Source: a virus. Taken from it: a stretch of 64,000 nt of DNA. Below, piece after piece: positions 53,101-62,039 of the stretch. Position 1 is the first letter of the stretch. Every line of letters starts with the position of its first letter. The DNA lies in IMG/VR virus record IMGVR_UViG_3300047548_000777, positions 1-64,000 of that record. One strand, 5' to 3'. Position numbers and translations under genes: made by a program. The notes under the pieces are model-generated. The model searched no databases. It was not told the DNA's origin and was given only the letters and a program-made list of their open reading frames with translations.

Positions 53101-55204
53101 TCTTCTTAATTGTATCTGCCTTAGTAACAGGATTAAGCAGTGCAACTGCAGTATCCCTTGCAAAATTTAATCCTGCAATAGTTTTTTGTTTCTGTAAAGT
53201 AGTTACTGTTGAACTGTAGCTTCTTGTATATGCAATTCCTGCATATAAAGATCTATAATTTGTTCCTAAAATTAAATCGTCAAGTACAGAATTTAAAATA
53301 ATTCCTACGTCTCTACTACATTTAGCTTGATCAAATGTTAACAGCCCTGGGTATTTTGTATCTACATAAGAACTAACTTGTTTAATAATAAACTCTCGGT
53401 TATCCTGTATCAGCACTTCCCCGCACACCAATCCGAATTCTGCACCGGTAGAATAATATATCTTTGGTGCGGCACCAGGACCGTTTGTTATTATATTTGT
53501 AATGATGTCAATATTGTTAGATATTGGGATGAGTGCAATCAGCCCATCTGTTAAATTTGGGTTGAATACTTGAGCGTGAACACCTGTTCCAGATAACAAA
53601 TCTGGAGCTGGTAGACTAGGATTATTTTGCAGTATGCTTGTCGCTAAAGTTTTAATGTAATCGAGTGCATCAACAGTAACCGATTCTTCTCCAGGTATTA
53701 AACTAGTAACGCCGTCAAAATATGCAAGTCCAGATTCGACACTTTTACTATTTCCACCAAAGCATGCATCGTATAATACATTTTCAACAATTATACCAAC
53801 ATCCCGACGACATTTTTCTCTAGCATATACAAAGGTAGGATACGTAGTTTCTACATAAGCAAGAACCTGTTCTTGAATAAAAGGCTTATTTGCTAAAAGC
53901 AATGTTCTTGCATCAAAAAATCCAATGTCTTGCGGAGCAGTATTGATGCTCATTCCTGCTAAGGGAACATCACCACGCTTAATTTCAACTTCAATCTCGT
54001 TAAGGCCTTCAGTAAATGTAGTAATTCCAACACTTAATGGTAATTGCACTGTCTGATTTGGAATAAACATGGTGCCATCTTTGAGCCAAGGTCCAGATTG
54101 ATTTGTGCAGTTTTGTATATAGGGAGACTTATAAATCGTTAACTTGCCTGTTTTTAAATTAACATTAGTCTTTGGTACAGTATTCAGAGATTGCTTAGAA
54201 ACAAATATGGTATTACCAACCACCGACCTAACAATCGTATTCTCTGCAAAATCTTCTCCAATAATTTCAATTCCTGGGATAACCTCATCCGAAATACTGA
54301 TAACTTGTATTTCGTTACTCTTTGGCTGAATATTTCCCGTGATTTGAACTGTATTTGTTGGGAACGCTACAGTGTATGCTCCTCGATCAATGTAAGGATC
54401 AATTATACCACTTCGTCCATTTATAAATTGCATCTGTGCAAGGTATGTTGAGCTATCAACATGAAATAAATCTTGAGTTTTGTTAATAGGTTCAACTGTA
54501 GTAGTTCTTAAATCACTACCTATAACACTGGTATATGGTTTTAGTCTAAGTGGATTGTTTTCTAAGTACCTGCCTGGAAATACTTTTATGCTTGTTCCTG
54601 GCCTATACAAAGGACTTCTAATCGCTCCTCCGATAGTTCTACAGGCCCTGGTAGGATCCATACTGCTGCCATCGTTTGTATCATCTCCGTCCATTGTAAC
54701 GTATAACGTATTCGTAACAATAGGAGCAGTTCCGTACGGTATTCCGGTGACAACCAAATCTCCTTCGAAGACTGCCTTTCCTGATACATTTAACTCTTTT
54801 TCGATGTCAACACGACTAAGAATGTCTACTTTCCCAGACCCCCTTGCATCAACGACCACATCTTTGTTGACTGTGTTAGTAATTTTGTTAACAAATAAAT
54901 CATTCCATGCTTGATCCGGAATACCTAAATTGAACGTATCGCTTTGCTTAGGAATTAAATCCGAAGTAAAGTCAGCTGCAACAGAAATAGAATCACCAGG
55001 TGTTGAACCAAAAGTTAACTTTCCATCAATAGTTGTATTACCTGTAACATACAAGTTGTTGTTAACTTTAACTTGTGTTGCTGAATCATCAGAACCTAAG
55101 ACAACGTCTTTAGAATCTAACACAACCTTGCCGTTAGCTTCAACTGCTACACTGTTATCCTTAACATTTTTTTCGTTTATCTGGCTTCTTTTTAAAAACT
55201 TCAT
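50147..55204 (-). CDS. Giant virion protein with beta-helix and five C-R-D repeats, 1685 aa
   Basis: The N-terminal ~150 residues are a virion anchor. About 165-290 is a beta-helix opening (VTMDGDDTNDGSS, RPGTSIKVFPGRYLENNP). Then come five copies of the CxRDxGxIxxxxxxDxxxGGN repeat described for the 789-aa neighbour, separated by beta modules and an LIIDGDRVSDISPIRSMVVD segment. The C-terminus (GGKVFFTSTDQNGDFRIGEG then LVINQATGTLTG) is typical of T4-like structural proteins. It overlaps the 115-aa gene by 1 nt (TAATG). Probably a baseplate or fibre component; exact position unknown. Confidence 0.75.
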   Translation of the reverse strand: MKFLKRSQINEKNVKDNSVAVEANGKVVLDSKDVVLGSDDSATQVKVNNNLYVTGNTTIDGKLTFGSTPGDSISVAADFTSDLIPKQSDTFNLGIPDQAWNDLFVNKITNTVNKDVVVDARGSGKVDILSRVDIEKELNVSGKAVFEGDLVVTGIPYGTAPIVTNTLYVTMDGDDTNDGSSMDPTRACRTIGGAIRSPLYRPGTSIKVFPGRYLENNPLRLKPYTSVIGSDLRTTTVEPINKTQDLFHVDSSTYLAQMQFINGRSGIIDPYIDRGAYTVAFPTNTVQITGNIQPKSNEIQVISISDEVIPGIEIIGEDFAENTIVRSVVGNTIFVSKQSLNTVPKTNVNLKTGKLTIYKSPYIQNCTNQSGPWLKDGTMFIPNQTVQLPLSVGITTFTEGLNEIEVEIKRGDVPLAGMSINTAPQDIGFFDARTLLLANKPFIQEQVLAYVETTYPTFVYAREKCRRDVGIIVENVLYDACFGGNSKSVESGLAYFDGVTSLIPGEESVTVDALDYIKTLATSILQNNPSLPAPDLLSGTGVHAQVFNPNLTDGLIALIPISNNIDIITNIITNGPGAAPKIYYSTGAEFGLVCGEVLIQDNREFIIKQVSSYVDTKYPGLLTFDQAKCSRDVGIILNSVLDDLILGTNYRSLYAGIAYTRSYSSTVTTLQKQKTIAGLNFARDTAVALLNPVTKADTIKKINELFKTVTDIIDKVSDFAAPDLEFINPLSTSSEELISTSNKINASRIIIKNKPFLVEEVIAWINKQVATNTPPFTSEFTYNISLCRRDTGYIIDALVYDLLYGGNSQSVEVANAYYLGTTTYLPGQIQQAIAAYEHLKQVISSVVQNIPVIPTQGNDDLRQYLELPVGTFDEAVTLQVLIDQINIIIEQSGTVVITMPNYIKGVNYTANNVDKITILTNLASIQTSTLGFLNEKYDTKAKCERDLGYIIDSISQDILLGGNKKSAEAGRGYYSANVLVIEGEATQTIDALNYAKGLMTNIVQNIKPDLTSEQVTNTYYSKGEITVGSIVRNTKIITDIIENGEAAVPEIYQGTALFAATGVSADDVQQSTKVTSVTPKAGVANTYIIGLDKPTVGIGTNSRLYFGYPSVYPLQDKDFDNYPEWDQRKYDKYGSMGGLIIDGDRVSDISPIRSMVVDAFTQLNQGGRGARATNRGYTQLVSMFTVFCSISMQVDNGGIMSITNANSNFGDYCMVSKGYGPKEFSGTIYNPANKVYNSLTKTFEFNQFYPDGYFPRNQQVCVFVPDAANRPHIGLVMEVIPPDDYINEQNLPGYITSTITTSEIIEDSLTISGIEVNDMYIGQHVYVRDQFGSYSDPVTGERYLLEDTVITDVGPDTIYLNTPVNKGGSFPENPTYFTIFVAGKAYYTILSSEKAPDPVAEGLLVFPNNQKAPELLTIEYIRTLLQSIVSNTMYGSPLQTAVPQVTLNLTNNPTTGTIARTLLLATIVYDILDQGQSATPGIVKKGFVTQSDADASELILLNINFIVAEISKFMDNYVVANPGFTYNKEKCLRDSALIPSKIAEDLTLGGNYNAVYSGLSYYARSGTYHLINLEDNTTNTSLFPDGAIINFYQRSYMTASGYLFEYVGAGSNYGALPMVGRADPKQEREVNMLDGGKVFFTSTDQNGDFRIGEGLVINQATGTLTGRTFEKSLFATMTPFILSIE

Positions 55205-55551
55205 TATGAAACTCTCAAGGTACTAATAATAGCGTTAACGCCTTTTCCGTTATCATCTGGTCCAATTGATGCAATTGCCTGAACCCTATCACCAGTTGAT
55301 AAAATAATTTTTTCAGTATCAAACGTAAAAGTCTCGCCTGCAGGTATAGTTAAACTGTTAACAACCATATTTCGAAAATCTCTTGCTTCGTTAGCTGGAA
55401 CGTAATGTACCGTTAATGTTATATCAGTGTCTGCACTATTACAAAAAATTATGCAGGTTACAGCATATTCTCGAACATCGGTAGTTGCAAGTCCGGGGCA
55501 AATAAAGATTGTAGTTTCAGCTGTTAAAATTGCTGTGCTCTGAATAGCCAT
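55204..55551 (-). CDS. Small virion-associated beta protein, 115 aa
   Basis: This is a compact all-beta protein (TTIFICPGLATTDVREYAVT, IIFCNSADTDITLTVHYVP, IPAGETFTFDTEKIIL). It resembles small structural accessory proteins found beside giant fibre genes of marine T4-like phages. The stop overlaps the ATG of the 1685-aa protein, so they are probably coupled. No enzyme motif. Function unknown. Confidence 0.6.
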   Translation of the reverse strand: MAIQSTAILTAETTIFICPGLATTDVREYAVTCIIFCNSADTDITLTVHYVPANEARDFRNMVVNSLTIPAGETFTFDTEKIILSTGDRVQAIASIGPDDNGKGVNAIISTLRVS

Positions 55552-55560
55552 TTTTATTCC

Positions 55561-56763
55561 TTAAAATATCAAACTATAGACAATTGCTCTACGTTTGCTT
55601 ATTAATTCGTCGTTTGTTCCTTGAGTGTTTACAAAATACAACCCAGTTCCACCGCCACCAACTTCGTTTTTAGAATAGAATTTAACATACCCTGGATTGG
55701 ATTCTTGCGATGGATTATAACTCACAGGAGCATTTTTTAAATTCAATACACTATCTAATAGTAATACGTTGGTGGAAATATTAGATATACTATTAGATTC
55801 TAATCTAATATTGTCAGCGGTTAATCCAGAATTGTTAACTACGACTCTAGGAAATGCATCTACGTCAAATACGATTTCACCAAGGCCTGTTTGATTTGTA
55901 TCGAATACCTGTACTTTAGTGTCGCCTTCTTGTATTTTATTTGTAGAAAACACTCTACGATTTGTATAATCTACAATGGCTCTTATATTCGGAATCGCAT
56001 CATCATTTTTTACAGGATTCGGACGTACTGTACCTGTCGCAGAGGATGTTGCAAGGTCTGGACCTTCGTTTCTATAAGTCAGTGTTACCGCATTAGAACC
56101 AGCATCAGGAACTGAGACAACAGTAGCAAATAATGTGTCAAAAGTTGAATTATTTAAAACAAATATATCAACTTGTCCACCAGCTATTATAGTATGCGGG
56201 GCACTGGTTGTTATTGTTGCTATATTATTAATTCTAGATATAGTTGATATTTCATAAACTGTATTAAGTTTATCGTAATCAAGAATTTGTCTTTCATAAT
56301 TTAAGGTACCAGTGACATTAATAATGCCGGTACCTTGTGTGATTAAATTTAAATCATTCCCACCAGTGTCTATTCTGTTTGTTGCTATACCTTGTATTGC
56401 AGTAGATAGATCCGAAGCATCTACATAACTACTATCAACAAATACAAACTGATTAGTTCGTTCGTCCCATAATATAGAAACGTCGGGCAATGTGCCTCTT
56501 TCTATAGAGATACCAGCAGTAGATCCTAAAGTTTTAACACCGTCCAACTGTTCATTTTGATTTAGAACAATAATGTTGTCTTTAATAGCTAGATTTTCTG
56601 ACTCTATAATTGTGGTTTTGCCTTGTATATCTAAATCGCCAACAATGACTACCTTACCTTGATTTCCTAAAAAATTAGTATCAAAGGTAATTGTACCAGG
56701 ATTACCCGGAGAACCCACCACAAGTTTGTAATTACTATCTTGTACTCTAACTATTTTTGACAT
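55561..56763 (-). CDS. Virion structural protein, 400 aa
   Basis: The N-terminal half has the GTITFDTNFLGNQGKVVIVG-DLDIQGKTTIIESENLAIKD pattern of stalk-type phage structural proteins. An INVTGTLNYERQILDYD linker leads to a beta domain in the middle. Related opening motifs (DLDIQG, NLAIKDNIIVLNQN) recur in the neighbouring giant proteins, suggesting a shared attachment module. It lies 9 nt upstream of the 115-aa gene in the same unit. Confidence 0.65.
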   Translation of the reverse strand: MSKIVRVQDSNYKLVVGSPGNPGTITFDTNFLGNQGKVVIVGDLDIQGKTTIIESENLAIKDNIIVLNQNEQLDGVKTLGSTAGISIERGTLPDVSILWDERTNQFVFVDSSYVDASDLSTAIQGIATNRIDTGGNDLNLITQGTGIINVTGTLNYERQILDYDKLNTVYEISTISRINNIATITTSAPHTIIAGGQVDIFVLNNSTFDTLFATVVSVPDAGSNAVTLTYRNEGPDLATSSATGTVRPNPVKNDDAIPNIRAIVDYTNRRVFSTNKIQEGDTKVQVFDTNQTGLGEIVFDVDAFPRVVVNNSGLTADNIRLESNSISNISTNVLLLDSVLNLKNAPVSYNPSQESNPGYVKFYSKNEVGGGGTGLYFVNTQGTNDELISKRRAIVYSLIF

Positions 56764-56813
56764 TATACATTCCCTTATACAAGGGGCCGCATAGACCCCT
56801 ATAGTAAATTATA

Positions 56814-57461
56814 TTAAGCAGCAACAGTTAATGTAACCGCATTAGAAGTTACACTAGTAGCACCGGTTGCACTAACAATTACACGATATAGGTTACCGTC
56901 ATCCGATGGTTGTAAACCAAGTAATAGTAAGTTATCGTTAGTAGATGCAGTATTACTCCATGTTGCGCCAGAGTCAGTTGAAACTTGCCATAGATAAGTT
57001 AGTGTAGCACCTTCTGTTACGTTAGCAACGACCGCAAATACAGCTTCTCCATCAGCTGCGGTTTGATCAGTTGGCTGCGATGTAATCGTAATGAACGGGG
57101 AAACACTGGTTTCAACTTCATCCATTTCTGCCTTTCCATCTGTAATACTACCATCGAATGTCCAAGCATAGCTTACACCGCCGGCGACAACTCTATGTGC
57201 AGCAATCTTAGTAACTCTTCGAACAACGCCGTCATCAGTTTGTACACTGATAGACATCTCGTTAGCTGCTAACGAACCATCTGCTTTATCTACTAAGAAA
57301 CAATCACCTGTGTTAGCACCAACTGTTACTTTAAATTTTCTGGTACCTCGTTGACTTACAATTCTGCCGTCGCCTTCTGCATTGGCACCGATTTTTGCAC
57401 GAACTTTGATCTGATTACCTGCGCCAGATCCGAAATATCTCTTGTTTAGTGGACGTCCCAT
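56814..57461 (-). CDS. Virion protein with C-terminal Ig-like domain, 215 aa
   Basis: The N-terminus MGRPLNKRYFG is followed by a ~100-residue beta domain (NQIKVRAKIGANAEGDGRIV ... FKVTVGANTGDCFLVD). Residues about 125-215 are an Ig-like domain (ITITSQPTDQTAADGEAVF, WQVSTDSGATWS, DGNLYRVIVSATGA). Ig domains on phage capsids or tails are thought to bind carbohydrates or mucus. AAGGAATC precedes the ATG. The 5' leader contains the cloverleaf element if transcription starts at the minus-strand late promoter 57561-57568. Confidence 0.7.
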   Translation of the reverse strand: MGRPLNKRYFGSGAGNQIKVRAKIGANAEGDGRIVSQRGTRKFKVTVGANTGDCFLVDKADGSLAANEMSISVQTDDGVVRRVTKIAAHRVVAGGVSYAWTFDGSITDGKAEMDEVETSVSPFITITSQPTDQTAADGEAVFAVVANVTEGATLTYLWQVSTDSGATWSNTASTNDNLLLLGLQPSDDGNLYRVIVSATGATSVTSNAVTLTVAA

Positions 57462-57474
57462 TTGTTTGATTCCT

Positions 57475-57482
57475 TATAAATA
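57475..57482 (+). promoter_or_regulatory. Late promoter, plus strand, reading into cloverleaf
   Basis: TATAAATA, spacer GTATT, predicted +1 at 57488, the first base of the cloverleaf. The first bases also read ATG and open a 19-codon ORF (MDVGSIHYGVGHRKLLSVK). Confidence 0.65.
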
Positions 57483-57487
57483 GTATT

Positions 57488-57554
57488 ATGGATGTGGGTT
57501 CTATCCACTACGGTGTGGGGCACCGTAAGCTATTATCTGTTAAATAGCATCCAT
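57488..57554. promoter_or_regulatory. 67-bp four-way-junction (cloverleaf) element
   Basis: The closing stem ATGGAT/ATCCAT (57488-57493 with 57549-57554) encloses three hairpins. They are GTGG/CCAC (57494-57497 with 57505-57508), TACGGTG/CACCGTA (57509-57515 with 57521-57527) and GCTATT/AATAGC (57529-57534 with 57543-57548). Only one base lies between the four helices. Either strand can fold this way. It lacks a T-loop and other tRNA features. Confidence 0.7.
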
Positions 57555-57560
57555 TACTAT

Positions 57561-57568
57561 TATTTATG
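57561..57568 (-). promoter_or_regulatory. Late promoter, minus strand, reading into cloverleaf
   Basis: CATAAATA on the minus strand, predicted +1 at 57555, one base outside the cloverleaf closing stem. It would transcribe the 215-aa virion gene with a structured leader of about 94 nt. Confidence 0.6.
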
Positions 57569-57577
57569 TATATTAAG

Positions 57578-58240
57578 ATGAATACTCCTTACACTTACCT
57601 AATCGGATGGTCAGATTTAAATCGTTGGTATTACGGCGTTCGATATTCTAAGAATTGCCATCCAACTGACTTGTGGAATCCGTATAAGACATCAAGTAAG
57701 ATAGTATTAAAATTTATTAAAGATCACGGAGAGCCCGATATTCGAATTGTTCGTCGTACATTTAACAGCGTTAACGAAGCAAGAGTATGGGAGCATAGAG
57801 TTCTATTAAAATTAAACGTCATTAATAAAGAGAAATGGTTGAACGGACATAATACTATTGCGTTTGATATTACATTAGTTCCAAAAGGAGATCAACACTG
57901 GACTAGAAAGAATCCCGAAAAGTGGGCTAAAATTCAAAAATTTAGAAAATACCAAAAAGGGGAAATGCATTGGACTAATCAAAAAACTGCATCGGCGCAA
58001 CAGCATCGAACGCGAATGAATAGCGAAATGAATCCTAATAATTTTTTACACAACAAGATTTTAAGAAGTGAAAAGTTAAAAATCGATAATCCTGTTAATT
58101 TACCAGGAGTTAAAAATAAAATTAAAGAAACATTAACAGGATATAAGCATCCTCGTAAAATATGCGAGCACTGCGGTAAAGATGTAGCTGATTCGATTTA
58201 TACAAGATGGCACGGAACTAAATGTAAAAATTTAGGTTGA
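57578..58240 (+). CDS. GIY-YIG-like putative homing endonuclease with C-terminal zinc finger
   Basis: The protein has 220 aa from ATG 57578 (MNTPYTYLIGW); an upstream in-frame ATG at 57566 overlaps the minus-strand promoter. The N-terminal domain matches a degenerate GIY-YIG fold: YLIGW, then YYGVR (18-22), and the catalytic-type Glu in EARVWEHRVL (E72). The middle is a charged DNA-binding linker with NUMOD-like HWTRKNPEKW and HWTNQ segments. The end CEHCGKDVADSIYTRWHGTK then C is a zinc finger. It is the only plus-strand gene in this region and is a likely mobile gene inserted antisense to the virion operon. Confidence 0.75.
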   Translation: MNTPYTYLIGWSDLNRWYYGVRYSKNCHPTDLWNPYKTSSKIVLKFIKDHGEPDIRIVRRTFNSVNEARVWEHRVLLKLNVINKEKWLNGHNTIAFDITLVPKGDQHWTRKNPEKWAKIQKFRKYQKGEMHWTNQKTASAQQHRTRMNSEMNPNNFLHNKILRSEKLKIDNPVNLPGVKNKIKETLTGYKHPRKICEHCGKDVADSIYTRWHGTKCKNLG

Positions 58241-58248
58241 CGTTTTAG

Positions 58249-58306
58249 GTCTACGCTGCGGGGTTACAGCATAAGTCTCGTGTTAAACGAGCACTCAGTT
58301 ATAGAC
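58249..58306 (-). promoter_or_regulatory. Structured leader (three-way junction) after a late promoter
   Basis: The closing stem GTCTA/TAGAC (58249-58253 with 58302-58306) encloses GCTG/CAGC (58255-58258 with 58267-58270) and CTCGT/ACGAG (58277-58281 with 58287-58291). The 5' base of the closing stem on the minus strand, 58306, is the predicted +1 of the late promoter at 58312-58319. Confidence 0.5.
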
Positions 58307-58311
58307 ATATG

Positions 58312-58319
58312 TATTTATC
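58312..58319 (-). promoter_or_regulatory. Late promoter downstream of gp23-tail terminator
   Basis: GATAAATA on the minus strand, spacer CATAT. It would now transcribe antisense through the GIY-YIG gene, which suggests that gene was inserted between this promoter and its original target. Confidence 0.6.
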
Positions 58320-58328
58320 ATATAAAGA

Positions 58329-58352
58329 AAAAGGCTTCCGAAGAAGCCTTTT
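58329..58352 (-). terminator. Terminator B (UUCG loop) after gp23 tail remnant
   Basis: A 10-bp stem, AAAAGGCTTC/GAAGCCTTTT, has a CGAA loop, i.e. C(UUCG)G on the minus-strand RNA, followed by T-rich sequence. It has the same design as the terminator of the intact gp23. Confidence 0.88.
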
Positions 58353-58374
58353 ATTGGGGGTGTTACTCAGTTAA

Positions 58375-58437
58375 TTAACTAAACTTGACTGCGCCAGAAG
58401 CGATAGCAACCTTACCTAAGTAATCTGCGGCATTTCC
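58375..58437 (-). pseudogene. 23: Displaced duplicate of the gp23 3' end (20 codons plus stop)
   Basis: This codes for GNAADYLGKVAIASGAVKFS followed by TAA, identical to the last 20 residues of gp23 at 59757. Nine of the 20 codons differ, all synonymously, with a 26-nt identical core (GCAGATTACTTAGGTAAGGT and the next six bases). Upstream similarity ends within about two codons. It has no start codon of its own and is followed by a terminator, so it is a severed gp23 tail and not a gene. Confidence 0.9.
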
Positions 58438-58447
58438 TACGGAAACT

Positions 58448-58750
58448 TTATAGTGGTAATTGAGAACTAAGTTCTAGTATTCGATCTTTCATTTCAATTA
58501 GTTCGTTGTTTGTTTTTTCAATATCTGGATCATTTTTATCAGGATAATTGATATTTAAAATACTATCGATTACAGAAATAAATTCCTCAACGTTATTTAA
58601 AATCATTGCAGATCTAGAAGGAGATCTTAATCTTATCAAAATATTTAAAGATTTTTCAAGTATATCATATGTATGTTTTACAGAATCAATATCTACTCCG
58701 CGCATGTTAGACCATAATAAATTCTTATCAGTTATTTCAAATATTCTCAC
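58448..58750 (-). CDS. Small helical ORF in the gp23 cassette, 100 aa
   Basis: The start is taken as GTG 58748-58750 (a TTG directly before it is the alternative), with AGGAG about 8 nt upstream. The protein is soluble and helical (DSVKHTYDILEKSLNILIRL, then IEKTNNELIEMKDRILEL). It overlaps the preceding 49-aa ORF by a few bases, and its stop lies 11 nt from the first gp23-tail codon. It is cargo between two gp23 ends. No recognisable family; function unknown. Confidence 0.55.
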   Translation of the reverse strand: MRIFEITDKNLLWSNMRGVDIDSVKHTYDILEKSLNILIRLRSPSRSAMILNNVEEFISVIDSILNINYPDKNDPDIEKTNNELIEMKDRILELSSQLPL

Positions 58751-58886
58751 CAAGAGATCTCCTATGCTCTAATTCTTTGATTAGATCCGTTAAATCAGAT
58801 TCTGCTTGATGACGCAAATCATTAATTTTTTTGTTTATTTCTCTAATTTTGTTAATTGTATCTTCAGATAAATTTTTATTTTCCAT
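58737..58886 (-). CDS. Tiny coiled-coil ORF in the gp23 cassette, 49 aa
   Basis: It runs from ATG 58884-58886 to TGA 58737-58739, translating to MENKNLSEDTINKIREINKK and a further charged helix ending SLGENI. It starts 2 nt after the HNH stop and overlaps the start of the 100-aa ORF, which supports a small operon. Heptad spacing suggests a coiled coil. Function unknown. Confidence 0.45.
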   Translation of the reverse strand: MENKNLSEDTINKIREINKKINDLRHQAESDLTDLIKELEHRRSLGENI

Positions 58887-58888
58887 AA

Positions 58889-59656
58889 TTATTCCGTTTT
58901 AAGTTTACAATTATCCCCGTGCCATCTAGCATATCCATTAACTGCAACTAACTGATTGCAATGAGGGCACTGCTTCTTTTCTCGTTTCATATTTAAAGCC
59001 CGCTGTGTTTCTGCTCGACGCACAACTACTTCCGGATCTTGTTTTCGCCCAGACAATGATTCACTTATCTTTTTCTTTGTATCTTCTGATACATTAATCC
59101 CAAATCTATTATTATTTTCTCCTTGTTTAGAAGCAGATAACTTTCCTCTCCATTCTTTAGAAAAAGGCTTGCGTTTTTTTCCTAATTTACTGGCAGATAT
59201 CTTCGCTCTTGCCTCTAGTTGTTTAGCACCGTTATTTTCACCGGTAACTGCTGCTCGTTGTCTTTCTGTTCCTTCTGCACTACGGTAAAATTTGTCTCCG
59301 TACATAGGATTTTTCTCGCCAGAGTATCGTTCACTTTGTAACATAGAGTATTCTTCTTTCAAATTTTCATATACTCTAGCTGTAACTTTTGTTTTATATC
59401 GTTGTTGGCGGGAATTTTCTGCTTGCATCATTCTAAATGCGTTAATCATTTTCCAGTGTGCTTCACCGGTAGGGTATATTTTTGTTAATAACCAATGGCA
59501 TATAAAATGTTCGCGGGCAGTTAAATCAGTTAAATTTTCAATGGAATCATCGCCGCCTAGACTTTTTGGCAGTATGTGATGTTTTTCTGTATAACCATCT
59601 CTAAGTGCTTTTCCTACAGTTGTAATAGCTACATACCATTTTTTGTATTTGTTCAT
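58889..59656 (-). CDS. HNH homing endonuclease with NUMOD3-like repeats and zinc finger
   Basis: The protein has 255 aa from ATG 59654-59656. The HNH core is EKHHILPKSLGG (H26, H27), NLTDLTAREHFICHWLL (N41, H50, H54). It is followed by NUMOD3-like DNA-binding units (GEKNPMYGDKF, ARAKISASKLGKKRKP, GENNNRFG, KKISESLSGRK). The C-terminus is CPHCNQLVAVNGYARWHGDN then C, the same finger type as the GIY-YIG neighbour. The longer ORF from 59692 is rejected because its ATG lies inside a host-type -10. Late promoter TATAAATA ends 5 nt before the chosen ATG. Confidence 0.85.
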   Translation of the reverse strand: MNKYKKWYVAITTVGKALRDGYTEKHHILPKSLGGDDSIENLTDLTAREHFICHWLLTKIYPTGEAHWKMINAFRMMQAENSRQQRYKTKVTARVYENLKEEYSMLQSERYSGEKNPMYGDKFYRSAEGTERQRAAVTGENNGAKQLEARAKISASKLGKKRKPFSKEWRGKLSASKQGENNNRFGINVSEDTKKKISESLSGRKQDPEVVVRRAETQRALNMKREKKQCPHCNQLVAVNGYARWHGDNCKLKTE

Positions 59657-59661
59657 AACTT

Positions 59662-59669
59662 TATTTATA
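59662..59669 (-). promoter_or_regulatory. T4-type late promoter (leaderless) of the HNH gene
   Basis: TATAAATA on the minus strand, spacer AAGTT, ATG at 59656; no Shine-Dalgarno sequence. Confidence 0.7.
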
Positions 59670-59683
59670 TTCGATAACTCAAC

Positions 59684-59712
59684 ATAATACATTAAAAATA
59701 AAATTAAGTCAA
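59684..59712 (-). promoter_or_regulatory. Host-type promoter of the HNH gene
   Basis: TTGACT (59707-59712), 17-bp spacer, TATTAT (59684-59689) on the minus strand, directly after terminator A. It gives the endonuclease an early promoter independent of gp23. Confidence 0.65.
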
Positions 59713-59714
59713 GA

Positions 59715-59738
59715 AAAAACCCGCCGAAGCGGGTTTTT
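59715..59738 (-). terminator. Terminator A (UUCG loop) after gp23
   Basis: AAAAACCCGC/GCGGGTTTTT has a CGAA loop, i.e. C(UUCG)G on the minus-strand RNA, followed by a T-run, 19 nt past the gp23 stop. Confidence 0.9.
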
Positions 59739-59756
59739 GATATATTAAATGCTCAA

Positions 59757-60932
59757 TTAAGAGAACTTAACAGCACCAGAAGCAATAGCAACCTTACCTA
59801 AGTAATCTGCAGCGTTACCTAGAGAGCTAGCAGTATTACTCAATTCCACGTAGCCATATCTCGTCATAAAGCTTACGACTGGTTCGAATGTAGACGGATC
59901 TAGAACAACACCAGAGCTCATTAGAGGAACATATGGGCAATAGAATGCAGCAGCGTCTGCTTCGCTGGAACCCTTATATCCAACTAGGATATCAGCGTTA
60001 TCAGCAGCATATGTGTTAACATAGATCTTCATTGCGTTGTTTAGTGTACCAACGAACTTGGTGTTTGTTGGAGCTTCAAAAGTACCTTCTGTAGTACGAG
60101 CAAATGCACTAGTAGTAGCAGATTGTAGAATTGTTAAAGCTAGTGGGCTAACAACTGCCCAGTTACCTGCGCCACGACGTGTACGCTGAGCGATTAAGTT
60201 AGCAACACGGTTGATCTGAACAGCTAAAGCAGCGTGCTCGTCACCAACGAAAGTAGCAGTACCGCTAACAGCAGACTGGTCATAAGTCTGTAGAGCAGCA
60301 CCTGCTAGGTTGTTTAAAGAACCTAGAACTTCTTGATCGATTTCAGCAGTAATTTCTTGTGCTAGAGCAGCCATGATTTCTGCTTCGATATCGATACCTT
60401 GTTGAGCTTGTGCATCTTGTGCAGCTTCGAAAGTCCAACGTGCGCTTAGTTTGCGTGTCTTGGCTTCGACGGTCTGCTTTAAGATTTGAATGCTCATTCT
60501 GTTACCAGCAGTACCTTCTAACGCAGCAGTATTAGCAGCCTTAGCAGCATTTGCATTTTGGTTACCAGAATAAGCTTCAGCAATCTTGAATGGGCTGAAT
60601 GCTTCTTCACCAGCTACAACGCCAGCGCCAGTGCTTGTATCACTGTAGCGAACACGTAGAGTATGAATTTGGCCAACTGGACCAGTTAGAGGCTGAACAC
60701 CAACTAGTTCGTTAGCAATAACGGTTGGCATAACGCGACGAATAACCGGTAGAATAACACGGTTTAGTGTTGCAACGTTACCAGCAGAAGTAGCGCCAGC
60801 TGTAGCACTTTCTGCAAGATACTTGCGTGTATTTTCTAATGTTACAGCCATTGTGGATTTACGGGTGCCGCGTAGGCCTTCTAATAGGGCTTCCTTGGTC
60901 TCGTTCCAACGGCCAGTGAGTAGTTCTGACAT
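59757..60932 (-). CDS. 23: Major capsid protein gp23
   Basis: The protein has 391 aa, shorter than T4 (521) as in distant T4-like phages. HK97-fold features: N-terminal arm (TRKYLAESATAG), VILPVIRRVMPTVIANELVG, QPLTGPVGQIHTLRVRY, FSPFKIAEAYSGN, then KTRKLSARWTFEAAQDAQAQ, the domain around VVSPLALTILQ, and C-terminal MTRYGYVEL. It forms the head shell around a gp22 core and is matured by gp21. AAGGAG precedes ATG. Its last 20 codons occur a second time 1.4 kb downstream with synonymous changes. Confidence 0.96.
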   Translation of the reverse strand: MSELLTGRWNETKEALLEGLRGTRKSTMAVTLENTRKYLAESATAGATSAGNVATLNRVILPVIRRVMPTVIANELVGVQPLTGPVGQIHTLRVRYSDTSTGAGVVAGEEAFSPFKIAEAYSGNQNANAAKAANTAALEGTAGNRMSIQILKQTVEAKTRKLSARWTFEAAQDAQAQQGIDIEAEIMAALAQEITAEIDQEVLGSLNNLAGAALQTYDQSAVSGTATFVGDEHAALAVQINRVANLIAQRTRRGAGNWAVVSPLALTILQSATTSAFARTTEGTFEAPTNTKFVGTLNNAMKIYVNTYAADNADILVGYKGSSEADAAAFYCPYVPLMSSGVVLDPSTFEPVVSFMTRYGYVELSNTASSLGNAADYLGKVAIASGAVKFS

Positions 60933-60947
60933 GTATATCTCCTTGAA

Positions 60948-62039
60948 TTATAATCCAGCTAAACGACGAATTGCAATAATGTTTGTGTCGTTTTCGCTAC
61001 TACTTATGCTGTTAGGAATTTTATTTCCTGTTACTTCTTTTGCCTCTACTAGCGCCTTACGTGTGTTAGGAGCAGCTTTACCGGCAACTACCGCTGGCAA
61101 GTATTTTTCAAAACTTGCACGTAGCTTAGTAGTTTGAACGCTTTCTAGTAATTCATTCATAATTACCTTTTGCTCACGAGCCAAAGGTGCTAATAATTCA
61201 TTCATTACTTCTTGACGTTCTTTGCTCTCCATTAGAGCCTTAATTTTTTGTTCTTTGCTTTCTAAGAGTCGTTTCGTTGCATTGGCTTCTTTACGTGCTT
61301 CGGCAACTGCGGATTCTTTCAGGTTTATAACCTTGAGCAATTTACTAATTTCTGATTTTTCGCTTAGATAACTTGTTTGGTACTCGCTTGCAAAAGCTTC
61401 AAACAATTTACGTCCGAAGTCGTTACGACGTGCTGCCTCGATATCTTCACGTAGTTGACTCATCTCTTTAGCTAGAGTTTGTTCAACTGCGCCTTCGACT
61501 ACGACTGCTGCTCTCTTGATAAACTGATCTTTTACTTTAGCAAATGCTTCGCGACCCTCACGAATTAAACGAACCTTTGTTTCTGCAAGTTCTTGTTTAT
61601 CTGTGTGGAACTCTGCAATTTCCTGTGCTAGAGCTTCTACTACAAACTGTTCAAGTTTAAAAAACTTGTCAGTCATTTGCTTTTGATCTTCATGCAATTC
61701 TTTTACTTCGGATGCTAGTTGCTTGACAACAAAATGCTTCATTGTTTCTGCGACGCGCTTGCCTTCCATTACAACCTTAGCTTTTGCTTCGGCTAATTGC
61801 ATACGATCTTCAACAAATTGAGCAATTTCTTCACGTAGTTGGTCACCCAACATACGATCTACAGCCTCGACCATGATACTTTTATCATGTTCGTAGCGCT
61901 GTGCAAATTCCTCACGTAGCTGTTGAGTTACTTGGGTACGATTCTCAGTGATTCGCTTTTCCCAAGCAGACTCAATTTCTGCTTTAACTTGTTCAGAAAT
62001 CACATTGTTTTCAAACAGGCTTTTTAATGCTTCCAACAT
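60948..62039 (-). CDS. 22: Prohead core scaffolding protein gp22
   Basis: The protein has 363 aa and is almost entirely charged helices (ENRTQVTQQLREEFAQRYEH, EEIAQFVEDRMQLAEAKAKV, EHDKSIMVEAVDRML), typical of gp22. The C-terminus (YLPAVVAGKAAPNTRKALV... IIAIRRLAGL) fits the conserved end. It forms the internal core on which gp23 assembles and is then degraded by gp21. GAGGAG lies before ATG. It is in order gp21-gp22-gp23 as in T4. Confidence 0.9.
   Translation of the reverse strand: MLEALKSLFENNVISEQVKAEIESAWEKRITENRTQVTQQLREEFAQRYEHDKSIMVEAVDRMLGDQLREEIAQFVEDRMQLAEAKAKVVMEGKRVAETMKHFVVKQLASEVKELHEDQKQMTDKFFKLEQFVVEALAQEIAEFHTDKQELAETKVRLIREGREAFAKVKDQFIKRAAVVVEGAVEQTLAKEMSQLREDIEAARRNDFGRKLFEAFASEYQTSYLSEKSEISKLLKVINLKESAVAEARKEANATKRLLESKEQKIKALMESKERQEVMNELLAPLAREQKVIMNELLESVQTTKLRASFEKYLPAVVAGKAAPNTRKALVEAKEVTGNKIPNSISSSENDTNIIAIRRLAGL

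What the first reader, a model, noticed from the sequence alone, without database searches (positions are those of the whole stretch)
58375..59819. Recoded duplicate of the gp23 3' end brackets an HNH-endonuclease cassette
The last 20 residues of gp23 (59760-59819) are encoded again at 58378-58437. The protein is identical, but nine codons differ, all synonymously, around a 26-nt identical core. Each copy is followed by its own C(UUCG)G terminator. Between them lie an HNH homing endonuclease and two small ORFs. This looks like an element that inserts near codon 371 of the major capsid gene and brings a replacement 3' end plus terminator, so gp23 stays functional while the old tail is displaced. 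Synonymous recoding could also protect the restored gene from the endonuclease. The alternative is co-conversion from a divergent phage during homing.
Basis: partly seen in the sequence, partly recalled or inferred. Interest (0 to 1): 0.92.

Follow-up and report, generated by a model that had tools for sequence, protein, structure and literature searches.

The report
Capsid-gene homing cassette with displaced tail
A selfish DNA-cutting gene cassette landed in the end of a phage's major capsid gene, supplied a new copy of that end and left the old one stranded downstream; relatives show that carrier phages also rewrite the capsid-gene target with silent mutations, apparently so that they are not cut themselves.

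Summary
The last 20 gp23 residues are encoded twice (nine synonymous codon differences, 26-nt identical core, each copy with its own TTCG terminator), flanking an HNH gene and two small ORFs.

Relatives explain it. The HNH belongs to a family found next to gp23. Its late promoter overlaps a copy of gp23 codons 361-366 (YVELSN), as I-TevI's operator resembles its homing site. Tail B starts at codon 370, just beyond that target. Across 72 gp23 genes, carriers are synonymously recoded at codon 366 (20/24 AAT; non-carriers 44/48 AAC; p=3e-10; rank 1 of 172 columns in a tree-corrected test). The window's own gp23 is most deviant at codons 357-368.

Tail B, terminator B, late promoter and the freshwater-2 leader keep the order and spacing of cassette-free phages. 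So tail B is the cut recipient's old end and tail A came with the cassette.

Best reading: a gp23-targeting homing cassette plus a scar of one-sided repair. The architecture matches fungal mitochondrial C-terminal hybrids; I found no phage precedent described. No enzyme has been assayed.

The parts
59757..60932 (-). gp23, major capsid protein, 391 codons, full length, ending in tail A
   Evidence: Pfam PF07068 1.4e-99; phrog_138
59823..59864 (-). inferred homing target, gp23 codons 357-370, in synonymously recoded form
   Evidence: top recoding stretch of the whole gene in the window's gp23; codon 366 association
59757..59822 (-). tail A: functional gp23 3' end (codons 371-stop)
59713..59738 (-). 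terminator A, CCCGC-TTCG-GCGGG plus T run
59669..59686 (-). operator-like copy of gp23 codons 361-366 (TATGTTGAGTTATCGAAT, YVELSN)
59662..59669 (-). late promoter TATAAATA of the HNH gene, overlapping the operator-like copy
58889..59692 (-). HNH + NUMOD3 homing endonuclease, phrog_655 (conserved start MNKYKKWY at 59656)
58737..58886 (-). orf49, small cassette ORF, relatives in two other gp23 cassettes
58448..58753 (-). orf101, small cassette ORF; all relatives found sit in gp23 endonuclease cassettes
58375..58443 (-). tail B: displaced recipient gp23 3' end (codons 370-stop); its 5' edge marks the inferred break
58326..58352 (-). terminator B
58312..58319 (-). late promoter GATAAATA, 55 nt after the tail B stop as in cassette-free relatives
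58238..58292 (-). freshwater-2 RNA copy 1, cut off just before the ribosome-binding site
57566..58240 (+). GIY-YIG-type endonuclease gene (YLIGW...YYGVRY), opposite orientation
57561..57570 (-). late-promoter-like TACATAAATA before freshwater-2 copy 2
57459..57547 (-). freshwater-2 RNA copy 2, complete, leads into the next gene
56814..57461 (-). next structural gene (head-protein-like, phrog_613), normal neighbour of gp23

Best explanation
A free-standing homing-endonuclease cassette (HNH-orf49-orf101) that targets the 3' end of gp23. The enzyme recognises gp23 DNA around codons 357-370. Carriers escape cutting because their own gp23 is synonymously recoded there. The enzyme probably represses itself through a copy of the target (YVELSN) that overlaps its late promoter. 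The duplication is the scar of one homing event: a cassette-free relative was cut at about codon 369/370; its left end was repaired by homology from a carrier (tail A, terminator A, HNH, orf49, orf101); its right end (tail B, terminator B, late promoter, freshwater-2 leader) was joined without much homology right after orf101. A second event of the same kind, mirror-imaged, put a GIY-YIG gene into the leader of the next gene and left a truncated leader copy. Shown: anatomy, synteny, operator-like copy, association of recoding with the cassette, recurrent gain/loss. Inferred: cutting position, autorepression, immunity, order of events.
For: (1) All HNH relatives with flanks sit directly after gp23, and presence changes at least 18 times on the gp23 tree. 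(2) Before the HNH start, overlapping ATAAATA, lies a gp23-like [YF][VI]EL[TS]N: most HNH promoters score 5-6 of 6, none of 429 other ATAAATA sites exceeds 3. The HNH copy ends at codon 366, tail B starts at 370. (3) Gene-wide scan of 298 codon columns: third-base association with the HNH peaks at N366 (20/24 AAT v 44/48 AAC, p=2.6e-10), next 379, 364, 360. With 17 independent pairs AAT follows the HNH 12.9:0, p=2.4e-4, rank 1 of 172; codon 360 rank 2. The window's and L085's gp23 have their highest 12-codon synonymous deviance at 357-368 and 358-369. (4) Carriers' gp23 matches their own operator copy worse than non-carriers' gp23 does. (5) Tail B-terminator-late promoter-freshwater-2 has the spacing of empty sites L014, L031, L053, L055; L188 and L189 show the carrier type with one tail, orf101 followed at once by a terminator. 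(6) Citrobacter phage Ursula shows the same kind of scar with a phrog_655 enzyme at nrdA/nrdB: 85.6%-identical nrdA 3' copies, and nrdB copies all broken off at the same nucleotide near codon 72.
Against: No cleavage or binding data. No near-identical empty site was found; the closest cassette-free gp23 is 83% identical in DNA. 4 of 24 carriers keep AAC at codon 366, and recoding also rises at 378-391 in carriers of other endonucleases, so part of the signal may be co-conversion of a shared 3' end. Codon use does not tell which tail is native: tail B has GGA at 372 (0/61 relatives) and tail A has TCT at 391 (1/46). In the HNH class the YVELSN copy is in frame with the enzyme, so it could be translated.
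Confidence: 0.76

Rival explanations
1. The cassette is an evolved module that always carries its own replacement gp23 3' end and always displaces the old tail, like fungal mitochondrial mobile ORFs.
For: Same anatomy in Glomus atp6/atp9/cox2/nad3 and Allomyces atp6 (PMC3630166). L085 and L189 have near-identical terminators on both sides of the cassette.
Against: Other carriers have no second tail within 3.5 kb, so the displaced tail is exceptional or quickly lost.
Confidence: 0.2
2. Tail A is native, and the block tail B-terminator B-promoter-freshwater-2 copy 1-GIY is a foreign fragment brought in by the GIY-YIG element; the HNH had only its normal place after gp23.
For: gp23-terminator-HNH-orf49-orf101 is the normal carrier order (L188, L189). 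One insertion would explain both duplications.
Against: Tail B would then begin by chance four codons from the independently inferred HNH target, and both edges of the block would be non-homologous joins.
Confidence: 0.15
3. The YVELSN copy before the HNH is a translated N-terminal extension or a remnant half-site, not an operator.
For: In the HNH class it is in frame with the enzyme and varies mostly at third codon positions.
Against: GIY-YIG genes at the same place carry other gp23 segments (NAADY; GEIA[VI][ST]N) that end in stop codons before the start codon, so these are not translated, yet show the same overlap with the late promoter.
Confidence: 0.2
4. Assembly chimera of two gp23 variants from one sample.
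For: Metagenome-derived; two other loci (L003, L048) show palindromic artefacts of gp23.
Against: The join is identical in two viral records over 10 kb; the two edges coincide with cassette border and target site.
Confidence: 0.04

Closest known systems
Fungal mitochondrial mobile ORFs with C-terminal duplication (Allomyces atp6; Glomus atp6, atp9, cox2, nad3)
   Same: Endonuclease ORF inserted near a gene's 3' end; hybrid gene uses an incoming C-terminus; the native C-terminus lies about 1 kb downstream; differences between copies largely synonymous (PMC3630166)
   Different: Phage major capsid gene, HNH/NUMOD3 enzyme with its own late promoter and terminators; relatives mostly lack the displaced tail; comparative evidence for target recoding
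Free-standing homing endonucleases of T4-like phages (SegA-G, MobA-E, Hef) and intronless homing
   Same: Enzyme gene beside an essential gene which it is thought to cut; co-conversion of flanks; protection by sequence difference (PMC2988022)
   Different: gp23-dedicated phrog_655 HNH family with conserved small ORFs; duplicated tail left behind. T4 segD sits after gene 23 but is GIY-YIG and antisense
I-TevI operator that mimics its homing site
   Same: Sequence like the homing site overlaps the enzyme's late promoter (15/20 nt; PMC2988022)
   Different: Seen here by sequence only, in free-standing enzymes of at least two families, each with its own gp23 segment
MobE-type phrog_655 enzyme at nrdA/nrdB (e.g. 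Citrobacter phage Ursula)
   Same: Same PHROG; Ursula carries divergent duplicated gene ends around the enzyme
   Different: Other target gene; about 32% identical protein

Membership tests
HNH homing endonuclease (phrog_655) | HNH catalytic motif and DNA-binding repeat | tested here: met
   phrog_655 8.6e-44; NUMOD3 above cut-off, HNH models just below theirs; H38, H39, N53, H62 invariant in 13 relatives
HNH homing endonuclease (phrog_655) | site-specific DNA cleavage | not testable with these tools
   needs purified enzyme
Intronless homing system | patchy presence beside a conserved gene, repeated gain or loss | tested here: met
   at least 18 changes on the gp23 tree
Intronless homing system | carrier's own target differs from the non-carrier target | tested here: met
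Intronless homing system | preferential inheritance in mixed infection | not testable with these tools
   needs culturable phages
Fungal-type mobile ORF with replacement C-terminus | incoming 3' end completes the gene, displaced native 3' end downstream | tested here: met
   for this locus
Fungal-type mobile ORF with replacement C-terminus | the displaced end is a regular companion of the element | tested here: not met
   absent in the other gp23 HNH loci
I-TevI-like autorepression | homing-site-like sequence overlapping the enzyme's late promoter | tested here: met
I-TevI-like autorepression | enzyme binds and represses there | not testable with these tools
   no binding or expression data
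Group I intron or intein | splicing element around the enzyme gene | tested here: not met
   no intron family in the Rfam scan of 55000-62000; gp23 A is an intact ORF

The most novel reading that the evidence does not exclude
The gp23 3' end of freshwater T4-like phages is a battleground of several unrelated homing endonucleases (HNH and GIY-YIG families). Each carries in its late promoter a copy of its own gp23 target segment as an operator (VELTN 362-366; NAADY 373-377; GEIA[VI][ST]N 379-385), and each drives silent recoding of that segment in its carriers. Target sites of uncharacterised phage homing enzymes could then be read off their promoters.
Probability: 0.55. Interest if true: 0.85.

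Novelty: new variant of a known kind. Interest (0 to 1): 0.74.

Why it matters
Homing endonucleases are common in phages, but their targets are known for few and the immunity of carriers is usually assumed. Here the target, the carrier's silent recoding and a self-repression site can be read from sequence alone, at single-codon resolution, in the most conserved structural gene of these phages. The duplicated tail is a rare snapshot of a homing event that was repaired on one side only. It brings an architecture known from fungal mitochondria to phages and shows how such enzymes make gene-end duplications and hybrid genes. gp23 is also widely used as a marker gene for phage diversity, so co-converted 3' ends matter for such trees.

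Tried and rejected
Tandem duplication inside one genome followed by drift: rejected, the copies differ at 10 of 21 codons with only one replacement, and tail B keeps a complete recipient-type downstream context. A second full gp23 in the genome: none (record is a 77.6-kb fragment). Intron or intein: no Rfam intron, gp23 A intact. Second tails in other carriers: none within 3.5 kb; top hits L003 and L048 are reverse-strand palindromes. Judging the native tail by codon use: inconclusive. The 26-nt identical core as a recombination trace: weak (P about 0.02). orf49/orf101 function: no Pfam, NCBIfam or PHROG family beyond weak hits. A conserved GGGATGGGAA motif near several HNH genes: no Rfam match. 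Solved structures: only weak matches to the I-TevI DNA-binding part and to HNH domains. Counting the nrdA-linked cousins' promoters was not pursued further after Ursula.

Full report
OBSERVATION. The duplicated gp23 3' end is real. gp23 (59757-60932, minus strand) ends in tail A; a second copy of codons 370-stop lies at 58375-58443. Over codons 372-391 the two copies encode the same 20 residues with nine synonymous differences, around a 26-nt identical run; at codon 371 A has Leu and B has Val. Each copy has its own TTCG-loop terminator. The C-terminus of gp23 is variable among relatives, and a degenerate DNA search for GKVAIASGAVKF in 2.9 million viral contigs found one contig, carrying both copies and identical to the window over 10 kb. 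In the virus's own 77.6-kb record only these two places match gp23. Tail B is an orphan: no start codon, an in-frame stop upstream.

THE CASSETTE. Between the tails lie an HNH enzyme with a NUMOD3 repeat (phrog_655, 8.6e-44), orf49 and orf101. Relatives of the HNH (37-65% identical) in viral contigs all lie directly after gp23 where the flank is held. Relatives of orf101 (33-39%) were found in six loci, all of them gp23-endonuclease cassettes, two with an orf49 relative. So HNH-orf49-orf101 is a recurrent cassette, and in L188/L189 it reads gp23-terminator-HNH-orf49-orf101-terminator-late promoter-freshwater-2 leader-Ig-like gene, with a single gp23 tail.

EMPTY SITES. In cassette-free relatives L014, L031, L053 and L055 gp23 is followed by a terminator, a late promoter and the freshwater-2 RNA (RF02980) that leads into the next gene, 78-100 nt after the gp23 stop. 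In the window the same series with the same spacing follows tail B: terminator B, GATAAATA 55 nt and freshwater-2 about 83 nt after the stop. Tail A in contrast is followed by a terminator and then by the enzyme's own promoter. Hence tail B plus what follows is the resident right-hand side, and tail A plus cassette is what came in.

TARGET, FROM THE PROMOTER. The HNH gene starts at MNKYKKWY right after a late promoter. The 18 nt overlapping and preceding this promoter encode YVELSN, the gp23 sequence of codons 361-366. This holds across the family: most HNH promoters score 5-6 of 6 for [YF][VI]EL[TS]N, while no other ATAAATA site (429 tested) exceeds 3. I-TevI has the same layout: an operator resembling its homing site overlaps its late promoter and is used for autorepression (PMC2988022). 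The idea generalises at this locus. GIY-YIG genes placed after gp23 carry other gp23 segments at their late promoters: NAADY (373-377) in L155, L160, L184 and GEIA[VI][ST]N (379-385) in L109, L124, L128, L134, L135. After removing identical contigs and one overlap artefact, 20 distinct loci match gp23 with 5 or more residues (V=I, S=T, F=Y), against 1 of 701 control promoter-like sites. In the GIY-YIG cases a stop codon precedes the start codon, so the segment is not translated.

TARGET, FROM THE CARRIERS. If the enzyme cuts gp23 there, carriers must differ there. In the gp23 clade with most carriers (24 carriers, 48 non-carriers, duplicates removed) I tested all 298 conserved codon columns. 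The third base of codon 366 (Asn) stands out: AAT in 20/24 carriers, AAC in 44/48 non-carriers, Fisher p=2.6e-10; next are codons 379, 364 and 360, the rest of the gene is near background. On a tree built from codons 1-340 the cassette changes state at least 18 times. In 17 independent pairs AAT goes with the cassette in 12.9 and never against it (p=2.4e-4), the first of 172 columns, with codon 360 second; the pair test corrected for 172 columns is borderline (0.04), the clade-wide test is not. In the window's own clade, non-carriers read ACA CGT TAT GGT TAT GTT GAG CTA TCA AAC at 357-366; the window reads ACG AGA TAT GGC TAC GTG GAA TTG AGT AAT and the other carrier L085 shares AGA, GGC, TAC, GTG, AGT and AAT. 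Both have their highest synonymous deviance of the whole gene exactly there (357-368, 358-369). The operator-like copy matches the non-carrier form better than the carrier's own gene in nearly all carriers tested. Caveat: carriers of all endonuclease classes are also recoded at 378-391, which may reflect co-converted tails or several enzymes.

THE SCAR. Tail B begins at codon 370, four codons after the promoter-derived target segment ends, and abuts orf101 within 8 nt, the same place where L188/L189 have their terminator. The simplest account is a break at about codon 369/370 in a cassette-free recipient, homologous repair on the gp23 side, and end joining on the other side. A cultured phage shows that phrog_655 enzymes leave such scars: in Citrobacter phage Ursula (PQ589834.1) a hybrid ORF of nrdB codons 1-72 and nrdA codons 529-end (85.6% identical to the resident nrdA) precedes the endonuclease, and all nrdB copies break off at the same position.

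A SECOND SCAR NEXT DOOR. A GIY-YIG-type gene (57566-58240, plus strand; phrog_37840, YLIGW/YYGVRY motif) lies between two freshwater-2 RNAs. Copy 1, in the resident position after tail B, follows the L031 sequence down to ACCTA[GA]AACGTCAA and is cut off just before the ribosome-binding site, abutting the GIY stop codon; copy 2 (45 bits) has its own TACATAAATA and leads into the Ig-like gene. Relatives checked have one copy. This is the mirror image: the incoming side restores promoter and leader of the downstream gene.

KNOWN AND NEW. The architecture is that of fungal mitochondrial mobile ORFs, where an endonuclease enters with a foreign C-terminus and the native C-terminus is displaced about 1 kb (PMC3630166). 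The behaviour is that of intronless homing in T4-like phages (PMC2988022). New here, as far as the searches went, are the phage case, the gp23-dedicated families, operator-like target copies in free-standing enzymes, and column-resolved evidence of silent target recoding. It works like the fungal elements but should not be filed with them, since other carriers lack the displaced tail. Cutting, repression and immunity are inferences awaiting assays.

Noticed in passing
57566-58240, 58223-58292, 57459-57547: GIY-YIG-type gene inserted in the leader of the next gene, with a truncated and a complete freshwater-2 RNA on either side: a second duplication scar.
   Followed up: partly
L109, L124, L128, L134, L135, L155, L160, L184 (about 90-115 nt after gp23 stop): GIY-YIG genes after gp23 whose late promoters carry other gp23 segments (NAADY, GEIA[VI][ST]N) in a non-translated form.
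   Followed up: partly
58448-58753, 58737-58886; L184-L189: orf101 and orf49: small proteins of unknown function; the relatives found for orf101 all sit in gp23 endonuclease cassettes.
   Followed up: partly
L191 2622-5111 (Citrobacter phage Ursula): nrdB 5' end present three times, all broken at the same nucleotide, and a hybrid nrdB-nrdA ORF before a phrog_655 endonuclease.
   Followed up: partly
L085 4967-4994 and 5797-5824; L189 after gp23 and after orf101: Near-identical terminators on both sides of the cassette, a shorter duplication than in the window.
   Followed up: no
L009, L017, L059, L061 after gp23; L061 7427-7631: Glutamine riboswitch (RF01739) directly downstream of gp23 and a manA RNA in phages related to the window.
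   Followed up: no
L084, L087, L088, L112, L118 after the HNH gene; L096 and L185 before it: Recurrent motif close to TCAA-GGGATGGGAAG next to the HNH gene; no Rfam match.
   Followed up: partly
L003, L048: gp23 followed by its own reverse complement, probably amplification or assembly palindromes.
   Followed up: no
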